Source: Pseudomonadota bacterium (GTDB taxonomy: Bacteria; Pseudomonadota; Gammaproteobacteria; UBA5335). From it: DNA of 37,505 bases. The notes under the pieces were generated by a model that saw nothing but the letters and a program-made list of their open reading frames with translations, was not told where the DNA came from and ran no database searches. Below are positions 11,951-34,339 of this stretch, one piece after another (within the stretch, counting starts at the first letter, position 1; each line of letters begins with the position of its first letter). The stretch is taken from assembly GCA_034189865.1 (NCBI GenBank), contig JAXHTV010000018.1, positions 9,801 to 47,305 on the forward strand. Direction: 5' to 3'. Made by a program: the position numbers and the translations under genes.

Positions 11951-12376
11951 TCATTCCGGCGGAGTATTGTCCGACGATGCCTGGGTTGCAAAGGCGAGGC
12001 GTTCGCCGCCCCCGGCCTGTATCGCCGATATTGTCTCGGCGACACGCGCATAGCGGACCGCCTGATCGGCATCCAGACGTATGACGGCATCCGGTTGTTC
12101 GTCAAGGGCCTGGCTGATCGCACGGGGTATCTGCTCCAGTGGGACCGAGGTGCCGTCGACGGCCAAAGCGCCATCAGCTGCAAGCGTGACCTCGACGACC
12201 ACCGGTTCGGCCAGCGGTGGCGCATCCGCCGCCGGCAATTCCACGCGAAGAGCCTGAGAGAATAGGGGCGCCAGCACAATGAATATCACGAGCAAGACGA
12301 GCATGACATCCACCAGAGGCGTGATATTGATATCGGCGACCGGTTGGCCGTGGCTTTTGTGCGTCCGACCTGCCAT
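11951..12376 (-). CDS. exbD: biopolymer transport protein ExbD/TolR
   Basis: The 141-residue product has a short cytoplasmic N-terminus followed by the family signature ADINITPLVDVMLVLLVIFIVLAP. This is one transmembrane helix with the essential proton-carrying Asp in PLVDV. The periplasmic domain follows (VVVEVTLAADGALAVDG; PDAVIRLDADQAVRY). With ExbB it converts proton motive force into TonB movement. Its ATG overlaps the exbB stop by one base (TAATG at 12378-12374), which indicates translational coupling. It is the last gene of the five-gene operon. Confidence 0.94.
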   Translation of the reverse strand: MAGRTHKSHGQPVADINITPLVDVMLVLLVIFIVLAPLFSQALRVELPAADAPPLAEPVVVEVTLAADGALAVDGTSVPLEQIPRAISQALDEQPDAVIRLDADQAVRYARVAETISAIQAGGGERLAFATQASSDNTPPE

Positions 12377-13002
12377 TAGTCTTTTTTCTCCGCGAAGACC
12401 AAATCAACGATATCCATTGCATTCTCGGCGGTGAGGGCATTGAGGCCGACTAAGGCCCGGGCCAGCAGATTGTAGGCGACCAATGCCGGAATAGCGGCCG
12501 CCAGACCGGCTGCAGTGGCAACCAGAGCCTCTCCCACTGGTCCGGCCACGGCGTCCAGCGTCAGGGCTTTCCCGGTGAGCGTCTGTAGGGCGTGCATGAT
12601 GCCCCAGACCGTGCCGAGTAAACCGATGAAGGGCGCGGTGCTGCCGATGGTGGCCAGCATGGTCAGCCAGCGCTCGTGACCAAACCGGATCGGTTCCTGT
12701 GCCTCTCCCAGACGCTCTCGTAGCTCCGCCGGGGTGAAGTTTCGTCGCCGAATCAAGGTTCCGGTCACGGCCGCCAGTTGGCGGCTGGGACATTCCGCGG
12801 GAAGGTCGTCCAATGCGGACAGATCGTTGTTCTTGAGGTGACCGGCCGCTTTCTTTTCTTGTCTCCGCCAGGCCTGCAGTTGAAGCAGTTTAATCAGCGT
12901 GATCACCCACGTGACAAAGGACATGGCCGCCAGGGTAACGAATACCGAACGCACGACGAAATCGCCATGTGTCCACCAATCCATGAGGCTTCCATAGTTC
13001 AT
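12376..13002 (-). CDS. exbB: MotA/TolQ/ExbB proton channel family protein
   Basis: The 208-residue protein has three hydrophobic helices (about 17-37, 113-136 and 155-182), with the family core LATIGSTAPFIGLLGTVWGIMHAL and GPVGEALVATAAGLAAAIPALVAYN. It forms the inner-membrane proton channel with ExbD and energises TonB. Its start lies 13 bases after the tonB stop and its stop overlaps the exbD start. ExbB is preferred over TolQ because the partners here are TonB and a receptor rather than TolA/TolB. Confidence 0.93.
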   Translation of the reverse strand: MNYGSLMDWWTHGDFVVRSVFVTLAAMSFVTWVITLIKLLQLQAWRRQEKKAAGHLKNNDLSALDDLPAECPSRQLAAVTGTLIRRRNFTPAELRERLGEAQEPIRFGHERWLTMLATIGSTAPFIGLLGTVWGIMHALQTLTGKALTLDAVAGPVGEALVATAAGLAAAIPALVAYNLLARALVGLNALTAENAMDIVDLVFAEKKD

Positions 13003-13015
13003 CTACTGTCTTTCC

Positions 13016-13843
13016 TCAACCGGTTTCGAGGCGAAATTGAATGGGTACGCGGACGGTGGATTGACGCGCCCGACCGTCAACCGTTGCGGGTCGGAAACGC
13101 CATTGGCGTACCGCCCTGAGCGCGGTCCGGTCCAGTACGGATCGTCCGGAACTCTCCTCGATCTCCACACGGATGGGCTTGCCCTGAGCATCCACGACGA
13201 CGGAGAGCATGACCACACCCTCCCAGCCAAAGCGTCGCGCCGCCGACGGGTAGGGAGGCAGCGGGTTTTCACGGTAGGCGGCTGCCAGATCGATGGGCCG
13301 GTTTTCGGCTTGTGCGGGAGCTTCTGCGGCACGGGTTTGTTCCAATTCAGCGGGCGGACCCGGCGCGACGGCCGGTGGCGTTGCGGTCGCTGTTGTGTCT
13401 GATACCCCGGAGGTGTCTTCTGCCGGGGGCGGCACGTTGGGAACGGGATCCAGCGTCGGTTTAGGCTTCGGTAACGCCTTCTTCGCAGTCGGTTTCGGTG
13501 GCGGCGTTTCGGGCGTGATGGTTTTGTCGACGGGCGCCGGAGGCGCCGGTCGTGCTGCGGGCGTGATTTTAGCCGGTTGGCTGGGCGACTGCTCTATGGT
13601 TGGTGGTGACGGCAGGGTGACCAGCCGGACCGTTTGGAGCGCATCGATTGCGGGGGGTGTGGTTGGGCTGTCGAGCCACGCCATGGCGAACACGTGAACC
13701 GCCAAACTGACAAGCACGGCAGCCATGACGCGTCGGGCACTGACGGCGCTCGGAATCTCAACGGGTTCCGGTAAGTCCTTTTCGCTTAAGGAAAATTTTG
13801 GTTTCGGCGGATTTTCGATCGGAAAAGGTATTGCAGATGACAT
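13016..13843 (-). CDS. tonB: TonB energy transducer
   Basis: The start is placed at ATG 13843 (MSSAIPFPIENPP): the frame-extended ATG 13882 would run into the upstream gene, whose stop is at 13852, 8 bases from the chosen start. The 275-residue product has an N-terminal anchor helix (RRVMAAVLVSLAVHVFAMAWL). A long Pro/Lys/Ala-rich periplasmic spacer follows (repeated PPKP, PKPKP). The C-terminal TonB domain has YPSAARRFGWEGVVMLSVVVDAQG and the ending LRAVRQWRFRPATVDG. It carries energy from ExbB/ExbD to outer-membrane receptors. A private TonB in the same operon as its receptor suggests a dedicated uptake system. Confidence 0.93.
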   Translation of the reverse strand: MSSAIPFPIENPPKPKFSLSEKDLPEPVEIPSAVSARRVMAAVLVSLAVHVFAMAWLDSPTTPPAIDALQTVRLVTLPSPPTIEQSPSQPAKITPAARPAPPAPVDKTITPETPPPKPTAKKALPKPKPTLDPVPNVPPPAEDTSGVSDTTATATPPAVAPGPPAELEQTRAAEAPAQAENRPIDLAAAYRENPLPPYPSAARRFGWEGVVMLSVVVDAQGKPIRVEIEESSGRSVLDRTALRAVRQWRFRPATVDGRARQSTVRVPIQFRLETG

Positions 13844-13851
13844 GGATCGGC

Positions 13852-15348
13852 CTAGGGTAATCGCAGCCGGATAAAGTGCCACGCGCCCATCGTGGCGACA
13901 AGCACTAACAATACAGCGGCGGAGGCCATCAGGATATCGCGTAGGTCTTTTCCAAATCCATCAAGGAAATGCCATTTGTGGATGTAGCCGAAAACCCATC
14001 CTTCCATTCGTGCCAAGGGACCGACATGTGCTGCCAAGGCACCGCTTCGGGTTTCGACGTACCAGTCATGCCCCGGGAGGTCTGTAAAACTGACCGAATA
14101 CACCGGTAGGCGTTTGAAAATAAAGCCGTAGTCACCACCGAAAGCGCTGACCAATCGGGTCTGGGACGGATCATTCGCGGAGATGCCCGCGTAGCGAGCG
14201 GCCAGTTCGAGGGCGTGTGTGACGGCTGCGTCGGCTCGCAACGCAGCAGTGCTGGCGTCCAGATATTGATCCGCCTGCGGTGGCGGGCTTGTACCGGCAC
14301 CGTGATGGCCATGGCCGCCGGCGGCTTGGGTCGGCCGGTTCTGAACTTGCCAATACGCCTTGCCGTCCATCCGGATCAGTTGGGCTTTGGTGATTGTGTC
14401 ACGGTCCAGATGTTGACCGAGCATCGACCAATCCGCCGTGATTTCGGAAACGTGAAAGCGCTCGGGGGAGGGCAATTCCACCTCCGTCGCCCCGAGATGT
14501 TTTGCAGTCAGATGAAACAATCCGCTGAGCGCGAAGCCAAGGGCAGCCACAGAGATTAGTGCACCGAGGGAGCGATGCCAGCGCACGCTGACAGGTTTGT
14601 TGTCCGACAAATGGTTTCGGCGCCAGAGTACGCCGTAAACCAGCATTCCGGCGCTCGCGGTGAAGGCGCTGCCCAGCAGCAGTATCGCCATTAGCAAAAA
14701 GCTCCAGTGTTCGCCGGCCACCGGGCCCCAAGAATGCAGAAGTCGGAATAGTCGTCCGGTCAGCGCCTTGCGATCATCCGTTAAGGTTGCCAAGCGACCG
14801 CTGGCGGTTTCTACGTAGGCGCGCATCCCGTCGGGCCGCTGAAAATCCACGCGGTAAACGGGCAGTAAGCGATCGATATATAGGTAGTCCGAATCGAACG
14901 CCGTGATCAGACGGGTTTCGCCGACGCTGCTGAGTTCGTCGCCCAAATAATATCTGGCCAACTTCACGGCAAAAGCGTGCTCACCGTTCTCTCGAACTCG
15001 GCCGGTGGCCGCATCGAGCCATAGCACGCCCTCGTCGGTTTCGACCCGATAGTAGGGTTTGTGCTCGAAACCCAGCAATTGGAGAGACCGAAAAGTCTTG
15101 ATGTCCAATGCGGAGAGAGCCGCACCAGGCGCCGTAACATCCGATAAGCGAACTGTCTCCGAAGGCGGGACAAATGCCGCTGGTTTCGGGTTGAGGCGAC
15201 TGATGATGGGATGTGCCAGACCGCTCAGTCCCCACGCGATAACCGCCAAGCAGACAAAGATCCCCACCTTCTGATGCCAGCGGTGGAGCTTGGCACTGAG
15301 CGGTTCTCGCGCCTCAATCGCGTTAGTCGGAGGTTCCACACCGCTCAT
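13852..15348 (-). CDS. PepSY-associated inner-membrane protein (PiuB-like)
   Basis: The 498-residue product has an N-terminal helix after the typical LHRWHQKVGIFVCLAVIAWGLSG start. Two periplasmic PepSY-type repeats follow (YRVETDEGVLWLDAATGRVRENG and YSVSFTDLPGHDWYVETRSGALAAH), then paired helices near 215-240 and 265-285 and a last helix at the C-terminus (ILMASAAVLLVLVATMGAWHFI). A His-rich loop GGHGHHGAG lies at about 343-352 and could bind metal. Proteins of this type occur beside siderophore or metal receptors; some are inner-membrane reductases. Its start overlaps the receptor stop by 4 bases (ATGA), so the two are translationally coupled. Confidence 0.85.
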   Translation of the reverse strand: MSGVEPPTNAIEAREPLSAKLHRWHQKVGIFVCLAVIAWGLSGLAHPIISRLNPKPAAFVPPSETVRLSDVTAPGAALSALDIKTFRSLQLLGFEHKPYYRVETDEGVLWLDAATGRVRENGEHAFAVKLARYYLGDELSSVGETRLITAFDSDYLYIDRLLPVYRVDFQRPDGMRAYVETASGRLATLTDDRKALTGRLFRLLHSWGPVAGEHWSFLLMAILLLGSAFTASAGMLVYGVLWRRNHLSDNKPVSVRWHRSLGALISVAALGFALSGLFHLTAKHLGATEVELPSPERFHVSEITADWSMLGQHLDRDTITKAQLIRMDGKAYWQVQNRPTQAAGGHGHHGAGTSPPPQADQYLDASTAALRADAAVTHALELAARYAGISANDPSQTRLVSAFGGDYGFIFKRLPVYSVSFTDLPGHDWYVETRSGALAAHVGPLARMEGWVFGYIHKWHFLDGFGKDLRDILMASAAVLLVLVATMGAWHFIRLRLP

Positions 15349-17498
15349 AGGAAGTCATACTTCATGCCAACGAACAGGGTCCTTGGTCGGCCGGGTGTGT
15401 AGGTTGGCCCCCATTTCGATGTGGTATCAGCGTAGAGCTCGTCGGTTGCGTTTAGGAGCTGGGCGTACAATTCCAGGCCGGTGTTGATCAGATAATAATT
15501 GGCCCGGAGATTCAGCAGATCGTGGCCTTCGTAAGTGCCCGTGTTGGCTTCATCCAGATACCATTCGCCGGTGTGCGCCCATTCCACTTCGAGTCGGCCA
15601 CCGTTGAGAAAATCGGGCCGATAGCTCAGGCGTAAGCTGCCGAAGTCCTCCGGCGCGTCCGGTTGCGTGTTGCCGGAATAGTCGACCGTTGAAGAGACGG
15701 TCCATTCTTTGAACTTGTGTTCCGAGCGGGTGTAAGCCAGACCGAGCAAGAGCGTGTCGGTGATGGCCAGGTCTGCGCCGAGTTCCACGCCATAGTGTTC
15801 CGTTTCACCAGCGTTGACGTTTCGTCTTGCGCCCGTTTCATCGGTGATGTTGATAATGTCATCACGCTTTAGCAGGTAATATGTCGCGACCTCCCAGGCC
15901 AAACGATCGAACGACTGTCCACGTAACCCCAGCTCGACACTGTCGGCTTTGACCGGCTCGAGGTCGGTGGAATTGTCGTTGCTACCGGAGCGGAATAACT
16001 GACCGACGGTTGGAATGCGAAAGGCGTGTCGATAGCTGGCGAAACCGTTGAGGTTATCCGAAAACTGATACACCAGTCCGAGCTTGGGGCTGAAATGATC
16101 CAGGCGCAACGTCGTGTCGGCCGGCCGGCGATGGATGGCCTCGTTCGATGGCGTGCTTGGGTCGTCCAGGTCTCCGGCTTCTACGGTGGGTAGGTTGTTT
16201 TGGTAGTCGTAGCGCACCCAGTCGTAGCGCACGCCCCCGTTGAAGCGCAGTCGTTCGGTCAGCTGCCATTCGCTGTGCAAATAGGGTGAAACCGATTGGA
16301 AATCGACGTCGAAGTCGTACAGCTGATCGACGGCCGAATAAGCGAGCCAATAGGGGCCGGGGTCGCTGTCCGTACGGATGATATAGTCCTGAATGACGTA
16401 ACCTTGGGTGTAGTCGAGGTCCACGCCCGCAATCCAGAACCCGTCCCGTTGGGCGAAATCCTGGCGGTATTTAAAAGCTAAACCGAGAGAATCGTGGCCG
16501 CTTTCGTTGACGTGGGCGTCCTGAGAGTCCAGAGCCGTCGTTCCAAGCCAGGGGATAAAGACTTCACGCCCTGTGTTCAAGGTCCAAGTGGCCAGATATT
16601 CCAGATCGTTGCTGCGCAAATACGGCGTCAGGCTGATCCGACCCGCTCCGGCCTCCCACTCGAATGCGGATGAAAGCCGCACGGCCGATACGTCCCGAAA
16701 TCCGATGAGATTACCGGCCTGAGCGGGATCTTCGATGTAGTCCTCGAAACGAAGGCCCGATCCCCCGGTATCCATATCCAACTGGGTGGCGGTTAGCACG
16801 GTGTTCACGGTTGCGGCTCCGGCGCGGGTATTCCAGGCGCCGGTGAACGATTGTCGGTCGAATGCCGTATTCTCGCGCCACCCGTCGCTGTCGATCACAT
16901 CCAGGTTGCCGCTGAAGCCCTGTTCGCCCACGCGCTTCGCACCCCGTATTCGGGCTCTACGCCAGCCGTACTCGCCAGCTTCCAGGCCGATTGCCAAGTC
17001 ATCGGTCTGTTGTGGTTGACCGGAAAGGACATTGATCACGCCACCGATTGCATCACTGCCATAGAGCGCTGAACCCGGGCCCCGAAGGACTTCGAGTCCG
17101 TCCGCGCCTGAGACATTCACCTCGTAAAGCGAATTGTGATTGAAAAAGGCAGGCGATCGGATGGGAATACCGTTTTCCAGATAGAGATAGACCGGATCAT
17201 AGGAGATGGGTTGACGAATAGCGGCCGCGACCCCTTGTCCCGTGCTGCCGAGTTGCACGATGTTGACGCCGGGAATTCGGTTGAATGCATCCGCCGGGTG
17301 GGTCGGGTTGATCTCCTCGATGTCCTCGCCTTGTACCACACCGATACTGGCGTCGGTGTCCGCCAAGGACGCTTCCTCACGCGTCGCGGTAACCACCACC
17401 GTGCCGAGCTTGTCTGTTTTGTTCTCCTCGGCCTGGATACCGCCCATGAACACAACCAGCCCCACCGCCATGCCGAGTGGGCCGCGCGCGTTTATCAT
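15345..17498 (-). CDS. TonB-dependent outer-membrane receptor
   Basis: The start is ATG 17498 (MINARGPLGMAV), with a strong AGGAG 6 bases upstream; the longer ATG 17540 is not needed. The 717-residue product has a signal peptide ending GGIQA, a TonB-box-like segment (LGTVVVTAT), and a plug domain (about 40-160) with LRGPGSALYGSDAIGGVINVLSG. A 22-strand-type barrel follows, ending in a terminal YDFL strand. The sequence alone does not fix the substrate: iron chelate, heme, copper or another large ligand are all possible. It is the first gene of the receptor-PepSY-TonB-ExbB-ExbD operon. No Fur-box-like inverted repeat was seen in the 180 bases upstream. Confidence 0.93.
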   Translation of the reverse strand: MINARGPLGMAVGLVVFMGGIQAEENKTDKLGTVVVTATREEASLADTDASIGVVQGEDIEEINPTHPADAFNRIPGVNIVQLGSTGQGVAAAIRQPISYDPVYLYLENGIPIRSPAFFNHNSLYEVNVSGADGLEVLRGPGSALYGSDAIGGVINVLSGQPQQTDDLAIGLEAGEYGWRRARIRGAKRVGEQGFSGNLDVIDSDGWRENTAFDRQSFTGAWNTRAGAATVNTVLTATQLDMDTGGSGLRFEDYIEDPAQAGNLIGFRDVSAVRLSSAFEWEAGAGRISLTPYLRSNDLEYLATWTLNTGREVFIPWLGTTALDSQDAHVNESGHDSLGLAFKYRQDFAQRDGFWIAGVDLDYTQGYVIQDYIIRTDSDPGPYWLAYSAVDQLYDFDVDFQSVSPYLHSEWQLTERLRFNGGVRYDWVRYDYQNNLPTVEAGDLDDPSTPSNEAIHRRPADTTLRLDHFSPKLGLVYQFSDNLNGFASYRHAFRIPTVGQLFRSGSNDNSTDLEPVKADSVELGLRGQSFDRLAWEVATYYLLKRDDIINITDETGARRNVNAGETEHYGVELGADLAITDTLLLGLAYTRSEHKFKEWTVSSTVDYSGNTQPDAPEDFGSLRLSYRPDFLNGGRLEVEWAHTGEWYLDEANTGTYEGHDLLNLRANYYLINTGLELYAQLLNATDELYADTTSKWGPTYTPGRPRTLFVGMKYDFL

Positions 17499-17681
17499 GT
17501 TCTTCTCCTTGGATTCGCGACAAATTTTGCCATCCGGCAACGCACAAAGCCCGGCAGTATAGCCATGGCATTTTGAGGCCGGGAATGCGACATGTTGTCG
17601 CAGCGTTTACCTGGGATGAAGGGTTTTGGCGAGCGATTAATGCGATTGGGGGCGCCGCGACGGGCGACGTGATGGCGTTGC

Positions 17682-19120: not shown

Positions 19121-19230
19121 GCCTTGACGTGTCGGTTCGGGTGGAGACGATTGAAACAGTGGCTTGATTCGCGCCCGGCCACTGGATTGAATCCGCACAC
19201 GGGGTGCGCGAACGATCATTGGAGTTTCAC

Positions 19231-20334
19231 GTGAATTCTGACAACCAAGGGGCTAAGTCCAACGTCAGGCTCAGTGCCGAGCGATACGACGACATGACCT
19301 ATCAGCGTGCCTTGGACGATTCAGAGGGTTTCGTTCGCGGTAGCGCCCATTTTGATAATGGCGAGTTGACGGTGCCCGGCTATCCATCCATCGGCCGAAT
19401 TTTGAATCTCGAGCGCGGCTTGTCCGAACAAGTGGGTGAGCGTTTTTGGATGGAAGAAAAAATTGACGGCTATAACGTTCGGATTTTCCGCCATCACGAC
19501 CGCGTCTTGGCGCTCACTCGCGGTGGGTTCGTTTGTCCGTTCTCCACTGACCGGCTCGCGGACCTGTTCGATCTGTCGTTTTTCGACGCCCATCCGGAGA
19601 TGGTGGTCTGTGCCGAGATTGCTGGTCCCGGAACGCCATATCTCGAGGGTTCACCGCCATTCATCCCAGAGGACGTGGGCCTTTACGTGTTCGATTTCAT
19701 GCGCCTCAATCGGCCGGGGTTTGTTGATCCGCAGGAGAAGGATCGACTGATGGCGGCGCATCAGCTCAATGCCGTTCCCGCTTTGGGGTATTTCTCGGTA
19801 GCGGATATCGACCGGATTCGATCGATTATGGTCCAGTTGGACGAGTCGGGACGCGAGGGCGCCGTGTTTAAAGAGGACGGTGGGCGGAATCGTCGGGCGA
19901 AGTACGTCACTGCCCAGTCGAGTATTGCCGATATTCGATGCACCGCCGGCGGTATGTTGGAGCTTCCGGCGGAATACTTCACCGGGCGCATTCTGCGAAT
20001 GGTCACTTTTCTGGAGGAACAAGGCCTGCAGGCTAGCAGCGATATTCCACAAGCGCTGGGATCTGCGTTTCTGGATGGCTTGAACGAAGCCGTTGCTCAG
20101 TATCGAGAGGTACACCAAGTTTTCCACCGCTTCCGCTGCCGTTTTCGCAGCCGGGCCGCGGCGGAACAGTTGATCGAACACTTCTATCACACCCAAGGTA
20201 AGCAGCAGCGTACTCAGGTGGAATCGCTCACCCAACAAGCGGATGGCTACTGGTTGCTTGTGTTTGATCGCGTCTATCCGGGAATGACGGGTCTGCTGGG
20301 CCACGTTCTGGGTGGCGGCGCGGTATATGACTGA
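19231..20334 (+). CDS. ATP-dependent RNA ligase, Pab1020/Rnl3 family
   Basis: The start is placed at GTG 19231, with GGAG (19221-19224) 6 bases upstream; the frame-extended GTG 19204 has no such site. The 367-residue product carries the nucleotidyltransferase motifs in order: motif I EEKIDGYNVR with the adenylated Lys77, LTRGG near 96-100, motif III CAEIAG (Glu129), motif IIIa YVFDF, motif IV EGAVFK (209-214), and motif V AKYV (Lys224). The EKIDGYNVR form and a C-terminal helical domain point to the mainly archaeal Rnl3 ligases, which join or circularise RNA ends through ligase-AMP and RNA-adenylate. It is convergent with the PIN-domain partner gene 71 bases away. The RNA substrate is unknown. 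Confidence 0.9.
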   Translation: MNSDNQGAKSNVRLSAERYDDMTYQRALDDSEGFVRGSAHFDNGELTVPGYPSIGRILNLERGLSEQVGERFWMEEKIDGYNVRIFRHHDRVLALTRGGFVCPFSTDRLADLFDLSFFDAHPEMVVCAEIAGPGTPYLEGSPPFIPEDVGLYVFDFMRLNRPGFVDPQEKDRLMAAHQLNAVPALGYFSVADIDRIRSIMVQLDESGREGAVFKEDGGRNRRAKYVTAQSSIADIRCTAGGMLELPAEYFTGRILRMVTFLEEQGLQASSDIPQALGSAFLDGLNEAVAQYREVHQVFHRFRCRFRSRAAAEQLIEHFYHTQGKQQRTQVESLTQQADGYWLLVFDRVYPGMTGLLGHVLGGGAVYD

Positions 20335-20405
20335 GAGCGGCGGGTGTTTTTGCGCCTGTGAGTTCGCCCGCGCACGCGAAAAGCCGGCAACTTGCTCGGT
20401 TGTGG

Positions 20406-20984
20406 CTATACCCCCGAGAGATTCTCCATTATCGAACGCAGATTGGCCGGATCCACTAACTTGACGCCGAACTTATCGGCCCATATACGCATACCATAAT
20501 CGGCGGAGACCAAGGTTGCGTCCAACTCCAACGCGAGCAATACGGCATCCAGATCTTCCGTCGAATCCAATAATCCCTGTCGAAGCGCTTCCCGGTAGCG
20601 CTGCCGGAGCCGGTGCACGAGTTGTCCCACGTTCTCCGGTGTGCCCTCGCCCGCCAGCTTGGTATGTTCTTCGGCGATTCGCAGGCCCTGATCGATTCGC
20701 ATTCGGACTTCCTCGACGAACTCGTAGAGCATTTGGCTGGGGACCTGGAGCTGGTGTTTGCGGGGCGAGCGGACACTGACCCAGGTCTGGAAACTTGCGG
20801 CTACGTTACTCATCTCGCGCATTTTGCCCAGTTCCTGGTAGGTGCTACTCGGCATGTAGAATCGGCCTTGCGCGTTCTTGGCCAGTTCAATGAAATCGCT
20901 GAGTGCCTCGATCGCATCTTCGCCGAACTGTCTGAAAATTTCGGGGTTGGTGAATACACTGGTATCGACGACGTAGCAGTCCAT
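20406..20984 (-). CDS. PIN-domain RNA ligase partner protein (MJ_0950/UPF0278 family)
   Basis: The start is placed at ATG 20984 (MDCYVVDTSVFTNPEIF), with AAGGAA 9 bases upstream; the 22 residues before it in the open frame look random. The 192-residue product is a PIN fold with early acidic VVDTSVF (Asp7), mid acidic residues and the late STEDLDAVLLALELDATLVSADYGMRIWADKFGV block, giving the metal-binding Asp cluster of PIN ribonucleases. Length and the VVDTSVFTNP / MRIWADKFGVKLVDP segments match the family known as RNA ligase partner, which co-occurs with Pab1020-type ligases in genomes. Its location tail to tail with such a ligase supports the call. Whether it cleaves RNA here is untested. 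Confidence 0.88.
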   Translation of the reverse strand: MDCYVVDTSVFTNPEIFRQFGEDAIEALSDFIELAKNAQGRFYMPSSTYQELGKMREMSNVAASFQTWVSVRSPRKHQLQVPSQMLYEFVEEVRMRIDQGLRIAEEHTKLAGEGTPENVGQLVHRLRQRYREALRQGLLDSTEDLDAVLLALELDATLVSADYGMRIWADKFGVKLVDPANLRSIMENLSGV

Positions 20985-21095
20985 GCTCAGGTGTTCCTTG
21001 GATAGCGATGAAGCGCCGTGCTGACCTTGGGTCGCACGTGGGCGGCGCAACTAGTGTATAGCATGTCGTTCCCCGCCGGGGCGGTTTTCTGAGCG

Positions 21096-21746: not shown

Positions 21747-22565
21747 CTATGCCGGCCCGGAAGATGTGGCGTGATTTTCCGGCATACCGATGAGATAGGT
21801 GATCCGATACGGAAAGCCGAATGGACCACGGGCTCTAATTTGACCGATGTCCCAATGGTAGTGGGGGCTGTCGATATCCCTGACCAGGTCAGCCAGTTCG
21901 CGGACGGAATAGGTCCGTAAGCAGGAGACAAAGCCATCCCAGGCGTACACCAGCGGACACAGTGGTATCAGGTAGGTGAACAGAAAACGCGAGAGGGTCA
22001 TCCGCCCGGCAAACGGCGTGAACAGCAAGCTGCTGAAAAACACGGCAAACGGCACGAGTAGGATCGTCGTCAGACGCCGTTCTTGGGCTTCGAATGCGCC
22101 GATACCCACGCCTTTTTGCGCAGCGTCCTCAAGAATCTTTCGCGCCCCCTCCGGCCGAAAGTGATGCAGCCCCGTGAAAATGGTCCGAAACGCACCGAGG
22201 TCAGCCGGTGCGTCGAAAGCGCTCGTGGGTTCTATTCGCCCACGGACCTGTCCGCTAGTTTTCTGGGCAAGGCGGCTAAAAGCCAGTTCGTTGGGATAGA
22301 GGTCTGTCAGGAGCACTTGCGGTGTGGCGTCGAAGTCGTTTCGTAACTCATCCATCAGCGCCGGCAGTGGGCCGCCACCACCGGAACACAGATCCACAAT
22401 CTGGTCGGCCCGAAGACGCTGCAAGCAGTCGTTGATCATTCCCGCGACGGGGTTGAACAAGCCGAAGGCGGTAAACAAGAAATGTAGGTTATCGGTAATG
22501 AAGTCGCGGAAGACCTTCGGTACCCACGGCAGGTCTTCCCATTCCCATAAATGAACCCGTGCCAT
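21747..22565 (-). CDS. class I SAM-dependent methyltransferase-like protein with membrane helices
   Basis: The start is placed at ATG 22565 (MARVHLWEWEDLPWVP), with GGAG 5 bases upstream. The 272-residue product has a Rossmann-type motif I (IVDLCSGGGGPLPALMDEL), an acidic segment after strand 2 (VLLTDLYPNELAF) and a later strand FRTIFTGLHHFRPEGARKIL. Together these fit a SAM methyltransferase in which a folding-state check precedes HH/F. About residues 165-210 are hydrophobic (TTILLVPFAVFFSSLLFTPF; FLFTYLIPLCPLVYAW), so it is probably membrane-associated. The substrate is unknown. It is transcribed toward the structured interval and PIN gene, with no terminator seen at its own 3' end. Confidence 0.78.
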   Translation of the reverse strand: MARVHLWEWEDLPWVPKVFRDFITDNLHFLFTAFGLFNPVAGMINDCLQRLRADQIVDLCSGGGGPLPALMDELRNDFDATPQVLLTDLYPNELAFSRLAQKTSGQVRGRIEPTSAFDAPADLGAFRTIFTGLHHFRPEGARKILEDAAQKGVGIGAFEAQERRLTTILLVPFAVFFSSLLFTPFAGRMTLSRFLFTYLIPLCPLVYAWDGFVSCLRTYSVRELADLVRDIDSPHYHWDIGQIRARGPFGFPYRITYLIGMPENHATSSGPA

Positions 22566-22887
22566 TGTCTCTCCAAGGCATTGTTTTAACGCTCGCATCC
22601 TTGCGAAAGCGAACTGTAATTAATAGTCAGGGCAACCTATCAGGTCAAGCCGACGTCGGCAGCGCGAATCGAGGGCTAGACGTAACGTGAAGCGGTTCTT
22701 TGCGAGCGGTGCGCGAGGCTCTGCGGCGCGGGCCGGCGCAATCGATAATCCTCTAATCTTGCCGTTAGAGTGTTTGTCAGCTCGGTCGGTGGGTTGTACG
22801 GTTACAAGTTGGTGCCGATAACCCCGGACAAGCGTGTTGGTATTGCTCAACACACCGAGACCGAACTGATTCAGGAACACGAGCGCT

Positions 22888-23715
22888 ATGAGCAGTCTGC
22901 GAAAGCAACTCCGAGAACACTACCAAGTGCCCCCCGACAAAAAACTGCGCCTCTCGGCACGGGATCCGGACAATCTCTACGGTGTCCCAGATGGCAAAGA
23001 CCAGGGGCTGGAACTCCGAGATACCCTGACGGAACGACTGGGTGAGCTGCAGAATCTGTTGTATGCGCAACAAAAGCATCGCGTACTGGTGATCCTGCAA
23101 GGGATGGATACCAGCGGTAAGGACAGCACCATTCGCCGTGTTTTCCGGGTTGTCGATCCGCTGGGCGTGCGCGTTGCCAGCTTCAGAGCACCTAACAAAG
23201 ACGAAATAACGCGAGACTATCTTTGGCGTGTTCACCGCCGGGTACCGAGCAATGGTGAGTTGGTGATTTTCAATCGCAGCCACTATGAGGACGTTCTGGT
23301 GGCACGGGTTCGCCGATTGGTCCCGAAGAGACAGTGGAGGAAGCGTTACGACCACATCAACGACTTCGAGCGGATGTTGACGGACGAAGGCACCACCATC
23401 CTCAAGTTTTTCTTACATATCAGTCACGAAGAACAGAAACGGCGATTGCAGCGACGCTTAGAGGATCCCACCAAACATTGGAAGTTCGATATCAGCGATA
23501 TCAACGAGCGGTCTTTCTGGCCCGAATATGTTCGGGCTTATGAGGAAGCGATTTCCCGGACCAGCACCCCATGGGCACCGTGGTACGTTATTCCGGCAAA
23601 CCACAAGTGGTATCGGGACGTGGCGGTGGCCGGCATACTGGTCGACACGCTCAACGCCTTGCGCATGCGTTTTCCGCCGCCGCCGCCCGGGCTGGATGAG
23701 ATTGTTCTGGAATAA
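22888..23715 (+). CDS. PPK2 family polyphosphate kinase / polyphosphate:nucleotide phosphotransferase
   Basis: The 275-residue product has PPK2 hallmarks: Walker A QGMDTSGKDSTIR (residues 71-83), Walker B IFNRSHYEDVLVARV (about 128-142), the lid region KRRLQRRLEDPTKHWKFDISD, and the ending TPWAPWYVIPANHKWYRDVAV. Single-domain PPK2 enzymes use polyphosphate to phosphorylate nucleoside mono- or diphosphates in the cytoplasm. An AGGAA lies about 10 bases before ATG 22888. It is divergent from the methyltransferase-like gene and convergent with the aldehyde dehydrogenase (35 bases between stops). The nucleotide class (AMP versus ADP/GDP) cannot be read reliably here. Confidence 0.94.
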   Translation: MSSLRKQLREHYQVPPDKKLRLSARDPDNLYGVPDGKDQGLELRDTLTERLGELQNLLYAQQKHRVLVILQGMDTSGKDSTIRRVFRVVDPLGVRVASFRAPNKDEITRDYLWRVHRRVPSNGELVIFNRSHYEDVLVARVRRLVPKRQWRKRYDHINDFERMLTDEGTTILKFFLHISHEEQKRRLQRRLEDPTKHWKFDISDINERSFWPEYVRAYEEAISRTSTPWAPWYVIPANHKWYRDVAVAGILVDTLNALRMRFPPPPPGLDEIVLE

Positions 23716-32729: not shown

Positions 32730-34103
32730 TCAGGAGCGCTCGCTTTCAAACAACGCCCCTGGCTCCAAATCAGGTTGTATCTCAGCTCCGAAATCAACGG
32801 TTTCGGTTGTTTTCTTGGACTTTGGTGGCGGTGCTTGCCAGGGTACCAAGTTTTGCCCGATGGTTTCATAGAATTTGGTTACGCATGCGACGAGTTCAGG
32901 AACGAAATTACGTCGCTGGGTGAATTTTCCACCCAGATCAGACACCGTTTTGATCTCAAATCCCCGCGGCAACAAACCCTTTCGGTTGGCTAGTAACACG
33001 TCTACGTCATTCCTGATCGTGCTTAGGTCGGCGCACGAATCCGCGGTTCGACCTGGCCACTTTGCAACAATCAGTACCGTACCGTTTTCCGTTTTCGCTA
33101 ACTGGCGTAAAAGCCACGTGACAGTGGCTGAAGCGCGCTTTTTGTCCCTTGGCGCATCTAATGACATTGATACCGTGACTGAGCGGCGCGTCAGGTCGGC
33201 TTCGACGGAGATGGGTGAGGCTGCGTCAGGTACATCAAGACGACTTAGGAGCTCACCAGTGCTGATGAACGAGTGTTGCATGGCTTCTAGGCGAGCTCTC
33301 GGGTCCTTGCGTTCCTTTGCGCTTAAGACGGTGGTGACGTTGGTTTCGAGCGCTCTGCTCATGAGCAACGCGGTGCACCGCATTAACTCATCCCAATCGC
33401 TGACAACGGCCGCTCCGATGGACGACCTCTTGTCCAGCTTGGACTTTGCGAAATAGAGCTTACACGCCTCTACCCATTCTTTACGCATCTGCTCGAATTC
33501 GGTGACCCCTGAGGAATCGTGTTCCAAATACCGAACATATTCTTCAAGCATATAGGCTTGATCGGGATCGGAAACGACGCTTTTCGACAGTTGGATTTTC
33601 GCTTCAGTTTCGAGGTGAGACCACGACCAGTGATAGAGAGAAACCTTTTTCAGCTTTTGTTTGTTAATTTCGCAAGGCGATTGAGAGGGGGTCGCGACAA
33701 ATTGATTGGATATCGTCACCACCGCGTCGATGCCATGAGCTTTCGCGATGTCCAGATAACGCTCGATCTGATCTGAATGGAGATCGACTTTCTTCGTTTT
33801 CACTTCGACGAGTGCTCGCCAGACTCGCCGACCGTTATCGACGATGATGAGAGCATCTGGACGATCGTTCGAGTTACTCTTTTCGCCCTTGAAAATCGGC
33901 TCTAACCAAGCTTGGATTTTGGCGCGCTTTCCGGTGGGTGCTCCTAGAGGTGAAAGTAGTACCTCGGCGAACTCCTGTACGGCTGATAACATCGCGCAAG
34001 TTACGCAAGTGTTTCGTAGTTCCGGTTTTGTGACTACAGGAATGAGCCGCGCCAATTCACCAGAGATCAAGTAATCTGGTCGTTTCATTATTTCGCCCGT
34101 CAT
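32730..34103 (-). CDS. PD-(D/E)XK nuclease-like protein of unknown function
   Basis: The start is placed at ATG 34103 (MTGEIMKRPDYLISGELARLIPV); ATG 34088 is an alternative, and residues read from the TTG at 34268 look non-coding. Neither ATG has a strong ribosome site. The N-terminal third carries a PD-(D/E)XK-like core: Asp83 in RPDALIIVDN, Glu100-Val-Lys102 in ALVEVKTKK, then QIERYLDIAKAHGIDAVVTISNQF (numbering from ATG 34103). The rest (about 135-457) is alpha/beta and helical, with no motif I recognise. I recall similar proteins, often labelled 'stress response protein', beside defence genes, but no restriction partner is present here. It is AT-richer than most of the window. Confidence 0.72.
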   Translation of the reverse strand: MTGEIMKRPDYLISGELARLIPVVTKPELRNTCVTCAMLSAVQEFAEVLLSPLGAPTGKRAKIQAWLEPIFKGEKSNSNDRPDALIIVDNGRRVWRALVEVKTKKVDLHSDQIERYLDIAKAHGIDAVVTISNQFVATPSQSPCEINKQKLKKVSLYHWSWSHLETEAKIQLSKSVVSDPDQAYMLEEYVRYLEHDSSGVTEFEQMRKEWVEACKLYFAKSKLDKRSSIGAAVVSDWDELMRCTALLMSRALETNVTTVLSAKERKDPRARLEAMQHSFISTGELLSRLDVPDAASPISVEADLTRRSVTVSMSLDAPRDKKRASATVTWLLRQLAKTENGTVLIVAKWPGRTADSCADLSTIRNDVDVLLANRKGLLPRGFEIKTVSDLGGKFTQRRNFVPELVACVTKFYETIGQNLVPWQAPPPKSKKTTETVDFGAEIQPDLEPGALFESERS

Positions 34104-34339
34104 TTCTAACAACCCGAAAGATAGTCGGTCACTACAAAAATGGCTACAGTCAAACTTATCGACTGATGGTTCTAATCCTGTTAGATCGCGGTATTTCGTT
34201 TGCGTATTTCCAAACGTATTAGGTATCCCGGAGTGCCGTGCTATCGTCTTCAAAAACTGCACTGACAACGACTTTTTCTGTTCGGCTAAACGTCTCTATC
34301 GGGAACTTAGCGCGGACGGCTTTCGATTCGAGTCGTTGA

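What the first reader, a model, noticed from the sequence alone, without database searches (positions are those of the whole stretch)
19231..20984. Archaeal-type RNA ligase paired tail to tail with its PIN-domain partner in a proteobacterial genome
The sequence shows an Rnl3/Pab1020-type ligase with all nucleotidyltransferase motifs (Lys77 motif I to motif V), convergent with a PIN protein matching the 'RNA ligase partner' family. Established knowledge: both families are mainly archaeal and their co-occurrence is noted in family descriptions, but no bacterial substrate or pathway is known. A nuclease-like protein beside a ligase suggests an RNA cut-and-join or repair module. Inference: the tail-to-tail placement may allow antisense 3' ends to balance expression of the two.
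Basis: partly seen in the sequence, partly recalled or inferred. Interest (0 to 1): 0.8.

Follow-up and report, generated by a model that had tools for sequence, protein, structure and literature searches.

The report
Protein-only RNase P beside RNA ligase

Summary
Window 19231-20334 (+) encodes a complete Rnl3/Pab1020-type RNA ligase (TIGR01209, 299.8 bits; cutoff 136.9). 20406-20984 (-) encodes the 'RNA ligase partner' PIN protein (TIGR03875, 218.2 bits; cutoff 95.3). They are tail to tail, 71 bp apart. The HARP-Rnl3 link was published in 2025 (PMC12153264), so this is a new member of a known kind. 'Archaeal-type' is misleading: both proteins score far higher against bacterial than archaeal homologues.

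Beyond the paper: all 53 linked pairs in a scan of bacterial genomes are convergent (25 overlap at their 3' ends), two haloarchaeal pairs are divergent, and HARP and ligase trees co-diverge (r = 0.91). The host has rnpB, rnpA, RtcB and 43/43 tRNA genes with encoded CCA, but no fibrillarin. So HARP is unlikely to be its housekeeping RNase P, and the published C/D-box circularisation model cannot apply as written. Most likely: an accessory RNA cleave-and-seal (repair or circularisation) module, substrate unknown. No computed feature supports the proposed antisense balancing.

The parts
19231..20334 (+). Rnl3/Pab1020-type ATP-dependent RNA ligase, 367 aa, GTG start, Lys77 as the adenylated lysine
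   Evidence: TIGR01209 299.8 bits, Pfam RNA_ligase and Lig_C; PDB 3qwu 358.6 bits, 2vug (PAB1020) 210.6 bits; invariant motif residues
20406..20984 (-). HARP (homologue of Aquifex RNase P; 'RNA ligase partner', PIN_5), 192 aa; D7/D140/D144/D162 and R127/R131 present
   Evidence: TIGR03875 218.2 bits, PIN_5; all significant PDB hits are RNA-free ribonuclease P, best 235.9 bits; invariant residues
20335..20405 (.). 71-bp intergenic gap between the two stop codons; no terminator-like site, no unusual folding
19221..19224 (+). GGAG, Shine-Dalgarno-like, 6 nt before the GTG start of the ligase
   Evidence: read from the sequence
20995..20999 (-). AAGGA, Shine-Dalgarno-like, upstream of the HARP ATG
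   Evidence: read from the sequence

Best explanation
The locus is a bacterial HARP-Rnl3 pair: a protein-only RNase P-type endonuclease and an ATP-dependent 5'-phosphate/3'-hydroxyl RNA ligase, inherited together as a two-gene unit. Most likely mechanism: HARP oligomers cut a tRNA-like or leader-bearing RNA, leaving a 3'-hydroxyl on the upstream piece and a 5'-phosphate on the downstream piece (established RNase P chemistry). Rnl3 self-adenylates at Lys77, adenylates that 5'-phosphate and seals it to a 3'-hydroxyl, either intramolecularly (circularisation) or by rejoining broken RNA. It would act beside, not instead of, the housekeeping RNA-based RNase P. Shown here: gene identities, intact catalytic residues, linkage and co-divergence, presence of RNA-based RNase P. 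Inferred: catalytic activity, action on a common RNA, circularisation or repair as the outcome. The substrate is unknown.
For: Family and structure matches; catalytic and tRNA-binding residues invariant (HARP residues defined in PMC8266387). Ligase only where HARP is: 14 of 14 in the class sample. 53 of 53 linked bacterial pairs convergent and mostly abutting, while none of the window's outer neighbours is shared with any of the 80 other loci. HARP and ligase distances co-vary, r = 0.91 over 50 bacterial pairs, r = 0.63 (P = 0.001) over 12 deep Pseudomonadota lineages. Adjacency in haloarchaea is in another orientation, which argues for functional coupling over mere hitch-hiking. The host has rnpB (331.9 bits) and rnpA; 13 of 15 other HARP-positive genomes of the class have rnpB. 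43 of 43 recovered tRNA genes encode CCA, which slows the one HARP tested about tenfold (PMC12153264). The 2025 paper reports 89% co-occurrence.
Against: No activity, interaction or shared substrate has been shown for any bacterial pair. Four recombinant bacterial HARPs did not process pre-tRNA in vitro (cited in PMC12153264), though misfolding is possible (PMC10941002). Archaeal HARP knockouts and the Thermococcus ligase knockout grow normally (PMC12153264). Co-divergence could reflect vertical or joint transfer of linked genes without functional coupling; no species tree was used as control. The host also has RtcB, which could cover part of RNA repair.
Confidence: 0.5

Rival explanations
1. 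Back-up RNase P plus independent RNA repair: both genes are kept for stress (salt, alkali, heat) and do not act on the same RNA. HARP substitutes for the RNA-based enzyme when that fails, and the ligase repairs broken RNA.
For: HARP can rescue RNase P-deficient E. coli and yeast (PMC12153264); holders are mostly extremophiles in that paper; rnpA and rnpB present here.
Against: All 14 ligase genomes in the class sample are HARP-positive; tight linkage in 53 pairs and co-divergence suggest more than a shared habitat. All recovered tRNAs carry encoded CCA, a poor HARP substrate form.
Confidence: 0.25
2. Toxin-antitoxin-like pair: HARP as a tRNA-cutting PIN nuclease, the ligase as the protective partner that repairs the cut or restrains HARP.
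For: HARP falls in the VapC-like PIN group (PMC10941002); two-gene linkage; chemistry of the ends is compatible.
Against: No VapC or PADLOC family hit. HARP occurs without an adjacent ligase in 27 of 80 loci (some are cut by contig ends) and in three haloarchaeal plasmids. No viral, phage or bacterial plasmid carriage seen. Ligase knockout in Thermococcus is viable (PMC12153264). A convergent layout is unusual for toxin-antitoxin pairs (general knowledge).
Confidence: 0.07
3. C/D-box RNA maturation and circularisation as proposed for archaea: HARP trims the 5' end of C/D RNA precursors and Rnl3 circularises them.
For: Rnl3 circularises C/D RNAs in Pyrococcus and Thermococcus (PMC12153264).
Against: No fibrillarin in this 99.4% complete genome, while archaeal controls ring. 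Bacteria have no C/D guide RNPs (established knowledge).
Confidence: 0.02
4. Antisense balancing: overlapping 3' ends of the convergent transcripts adjust expression of the two genes, with no necessary biochemical cooperation.
For: Convergence in 53 of 53 bacterial pairs; coding 3' ends overlap in 25 of 53. No terminator-like site in the window's gap, so transcripts may overlap.
Against: No structure signal in the window gap. Some Thioalkalivibrio gaps contain long inverted repeats that could act as two-way terminators (sequences). By a crude count 70 of 132 other convergent neighbours in the same loci also overlap, so overlap is not special. Haloarchaeal pairs are head to head.
Confidence: 0.12

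Closest known systems
HARP (homologue of Aquifex RNase P), TIGR03875 / PIN_5, e.g. Aq880 (7f3e), Hhal2243 (7og5), Hth1307 (8ssf)
   Same: Full-length match of 220-236 bits, catalytic aspartates and the two critical spike-helix arginines conserved.
   Different: The host has RNA-based RNase P, unlike Aquifex; the protein sits on a long branch (0.82) of the bacterial cluster without strongly supported close kin.
Rnl3 RNA ligase, Pab1020 family, TIGR01209 / Lig_C
   Same: Full length, all nucleotidyltransferase motifs, Pab1020 C-terminal domain.
   Different: Closer to the structure 3qwu (358.6 bits; from general knowledge an Aquifex protein) than to PAB1020 (210.6 bits); no C/D-box system in the host.
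Published HARP-Rnl3 co-occurrence (Seshadri and Gopalan, mBio 2025, PMC12153264)
   Same: Same two families, adjacent, opposite strands, as in other bacteria that also have RNA-based RNase P.
   Different: The paper's main text calls the layout 'typically bidirectional' without separating the two forms; here bacteria are convergent in 53 of 53 and two haloarchaeal plasmids are divergent. This lineage is one more holder; five sampled genomes of its family lack HARP.

Membership tests
HARP (protein-only RNase P) | TIGR03875 / PIN_5 match above curated cutoff | tested here: met
   218.2 against 95.3 bits; PIN_5 216.3 against 27 bits
HARP (protein-only RNase P) | Catalytic aspartates (Aq880 D7, D138, D142, D160/161) | tested here: met
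   D7, D140, D144, D162 present and invariant in 16 sequences (residues from PMC8266387)
HARP (protein-only RNase P) | Spike-helix arginines R125 and R129 needed for pre-tRNA cleavage | tested here: met
   R127 and R131 at the aligned positions, invariant
HARP (protein-only RNase P) | Oligomerises and cleaves pre-tRNA 5' leaders | not testable with these tools
   Needs biochemistry; four related bacterial HARPs were inactive in vitro (cited in PMC12153264)
Rnl3 (Pab1020-type RNA ligase) | TIGR01209 above cutoff plus Pab1020 C-terminal domain (Lig_C) | tested here: met
   299.8 against 136.9 bits; Lig_C 64.8 against 25 bits
Rnl3 (Pab1020-type RNA ligase) | Nucleotidyltransferase motifs I to V with the motif I lysine | tested here: met
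   K77 in EEKIDGYNVR, TRGGF, CAEIAG, VFDF, EGAVFK, RRAKYV
Rnl3 (Pab1020-type RNA ligase) | ATP-dependent RNA ligation or circularisation | not testable with these tools
   Needs an enzyme assay
ATP-dependent DNA ligase or mRNA capping enzyme | Match to DNA ligase or capping-enzyme families | tested here: not met
   No such Pfam or NCBIfam hit at E up to 0.01; 'DNA ligase' is only a depositor's name for 3qwu and 8uce-8uci
VapC toxin | Match to a VapC family with an adjacent antitoxin | tested here: not met
   No VapC model among the NCBIfam and Pfam hits; no PADLOC hit
C/D-box RNA circularisation pathway | Fibrillarin-containing C/D RNP in the host | tested here: not met
   No fibrillarin in G000, while all four archaeal control genomes ring

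The most novel reading that the evidence does not exclude
In bacteria HARP and Rnl3 form one two-gene RNA cleave-and-seal pathway, always laid tail to tail, that makes circular or repaired RNAs from a substrate other than C/D-box RNA or housekeeping pre-tRNA: a bacterial RNA maturation or repair pathway that has not been described.
Probability: 0.35. Interest if true: 0.75.

Novelty: new member of a known kind. Interest (0 to 1): 0.42.

Why it matters
Why some prokaryotes keep a protein-only RNase P beside the ribozyme form is an open question, and the ligase link is the best clue. Bacteria lack C/D guide RNPs, so a bacterial pair separates the general function from the archaeal-specific proposal. 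Thioalkalivibrio strains with the same layout (for example AKL19, ALJ16, ALE14) make it testable.

Tried and rejected
Housekeeping RNase P replacement: rejected, rnpB and rnpA are present. C/D-box model: rejected for this host, no fibrillarin. tRNA splicing or permuted tRNAs as substrate: 43 ordinary tRNA genes; of the usual set only Ile-GAU and Ala-TGC were not seen, which usually lie in rRNA operons that drafts lose. Mobile element, phage or plasmid carriage: no viral contigs relative of the ligase, no phage match for HARP, only haloarchaeal plasmids for the ligase. Defence system: no PADLOC hit for either protein. Known RNA element in the window: no Rfam match. Terminator or structured RNA in the 71-bp gap: none. 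Conserved third gene: none of the window's neighbours recurs beside other pairs. Clean empty site in sister genomes: the neighbouring methyltransferase-PPK2 pair is conserved in two sister genomes that lack HARP, but other flanking genes do not line up, so no insertion boundary was defined. A wider archaeal survey was not possible.

Full report
What is there. The window holds a complete Rnl3-type RNA ligase at 19231-20334 (+) and, convergent with it, a 192-aa PIN-domain protein at 20406-20984 (-), with 71 bp between the stop codons. The ligase scores 299.8 bits to TIGR01209 (cutoff 136.9) and also matches Pfam RNA_ligase and the Pab1020 C-terminal domain Lig_C; no DNA-ligase or capping-enzyme family appears. 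Lys77 and the other nucleotidyltransferase motifs are intact, and the key residues are invariant across 14 gammaproteobacterial sequences. The PIN protein scores 218.2 bits to TIGR03875 (cutoff 95.3) and 216.3 to PIN_5; no VapC model matches.

What the partner is. All significant PDB sequence matches of the PIN protein (158-236 bits) are entries called RNA-free ribonuclease P, that is HARP. Aligned to Aq880, the catalytic aspartates D7, D138, D142 and D160/161 and the arginines R125 and R129 (PMC8266387) correspond to D7, D140, D144, D162, R127 and R131, all invariant in 16 sequences.

What is already known. Seshadri and Gopalan (mBio 2025, PMC12153264) reported that 89% of HARP-positive genomes carry Rnl3, that all Rnl3-positive genomes are HARP-positive, that 80% of bacterial pairs are co-localised, and that the genes are 'typically bidirectional'. 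They proposed repair, toxin-antitoxin, C/D-box RNA circularisation, and removal of adenylated leaders. The present pair is therefore a further member of a described association.

Context in this genome. G000 (2.9 Mb, 99.4% complete) has RNA-based RNase P: rnpB at 331.9 bits and rnpA at 72.5 bits. Of 15 other HARP-positive genomes of the class, 13 also have rnpB; the two without are drafts of over 400 contigs. All 43 recovered tRNA genes encode CCA, which slows Hydrogenobacter HARP about tenfold (cited in PMC12153264). Fibrillarin is absent and RtcB is present. HARP is thus unlikely to be the housekeeping enzyme here, and the C/D-box model cannot hold in this host. The host is a gammaproteobacterium by inference: one genome in its class sample, G223, has a HARP contig whose length and position match a Thioalkalivibrio sp. 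ALJ16 record.

Distribution and layout. In a class sample of 369 genomes, 16 have HARP and 14 have the ligase above cutoff; all 14 are among the 16. Where both lie on one contig (11 genomes including this one) they are convergent, by the coordinates. A genome-collection scan with the HARP alignment gave 80 loci, mostly Aquificota and Gammaproteobacteria, with a few Zetaproteobacteria, Verrucomicrobia and others. The ligase lies in the locus in 53, and all 53 are convergent; 25 of these overlap at the coding 3' ends by 4 to 54 bases. In the same loci convergent neighbours make up about 20% of gene pairs by a crude ORF count. The 53 are not independent, and a single ancestral layout kept in all is the simplest reading. 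The class sample and the scan share some genomes. One Acidobacteria-labelled MAG falls inside Aquificaceae and may be a mis-bin. In haloarchaea, two plasmids carry the pair head to head and three carry HARP without an adjacent ligase. Different adjacency layouts in the two domains favour a functional link, though only two archaeal pairs were seen.

Inheritance. HARP and ligase trees co-diverge: r = 0.91 over 50 bacterial pairs (0 of 5000 permutations as high) and r = 0.63 (P = 0.001) over 12 deep Pseudomonadota lineages. The window's proteins sit on long branches (0.82 and 0.86) within the bacterial cluster, without strongly supported close kin, well apart from the haloarchaeal sequences. By PDB scores they are closer to the bacterial types (3qwu, which from general knowledge is the Aquifex enzyme, 358.6 bits; Aquifex HARP 7f3e 230 bits) than to the archaeal ones (PAB1020 210.6 bits; 7e8j, Thermococcus celer HARP, 158.4 bits). 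Five sampled genomes of the same family and three others of the order lack HARP, so the pair was gained in this lineage or lost in its kin; which of the two is not settled. None of the window's other neighbours recurs beside other pairs, so the two genes alone are the conserved unit.

Mechanism. Shown: identities, intact active sites, tight linkage, co-divergence, presence of RNA-based RNase P. From established chemistry: RNase P-type hydrolysis leaves a 3'-hydroxyl and a 5'-phosphate, which are the ends Rnl3 seals (RtcB, also in this genome, uses a different end chemistry). Inferred: HARP cuts and Rnl3 seals the same RNA, giving circular or repaired RNA. This step is not shown for any bacterium. 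Antisense balancing is not supported by the window's gap, and overlap of 3' ends is about as common among other convergent neighbours by the crude count (70 of 132).

Limits. No wide archaeal survey could be run. The ORF picks behind the background counts are crude. Absence of the ligase in 27 loci includes some cut by contig ends. No species tree controls the co-divergence test. The trees were quick searches without bootstrap.

Noticed in passing
L081, between 6567 and 7434: In a Methylothermaceae MAG an apparent MNT-type nucleotidyltransferase gene (read by eye from the sequence) sits between HARP and the ligase; another pair (L060) has a 1070-bp insert.
   Followed up: no
L087, L091, L098: In Verrucomicrobia the HARP and ligase genes overlap by 54 nt at their 3' ends, the largest overlap seen.
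   Followed up: no
L039: A HARP-ligase pair in a MAG labelled Acidobacteria falls inside Aquificaceae in both trees and shares their neighbours; possibly a mis-binned contig.
   Followed up: partly
L088, L092, L097 intergenic gaps: Some Thioalkalivibrio gaps between HARP and ligase hold long near-perfect inverted repeats (about -52 to -63 kcal/mol) that could be two-way terminators or repetitive elements.
   Followed up: no
window 21747-23715: A methyltransferase-like gene without a Pfam hit and a PPK2 polyphosphate kinase form a divergent pair conserved in two sister genomes.
   Followed up: partly
window 12376-17540: Apparent TonB-dependent transport cluster: receptor, PepSY_TM protein, TonB, ExbB/TolQ-type protein.
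   Followed up: no
window 32730-34268 (-): 512-aa ORF with only a sub-threshold VRR_NUC nuclease hit (19.8 bits).
   Followed up: no
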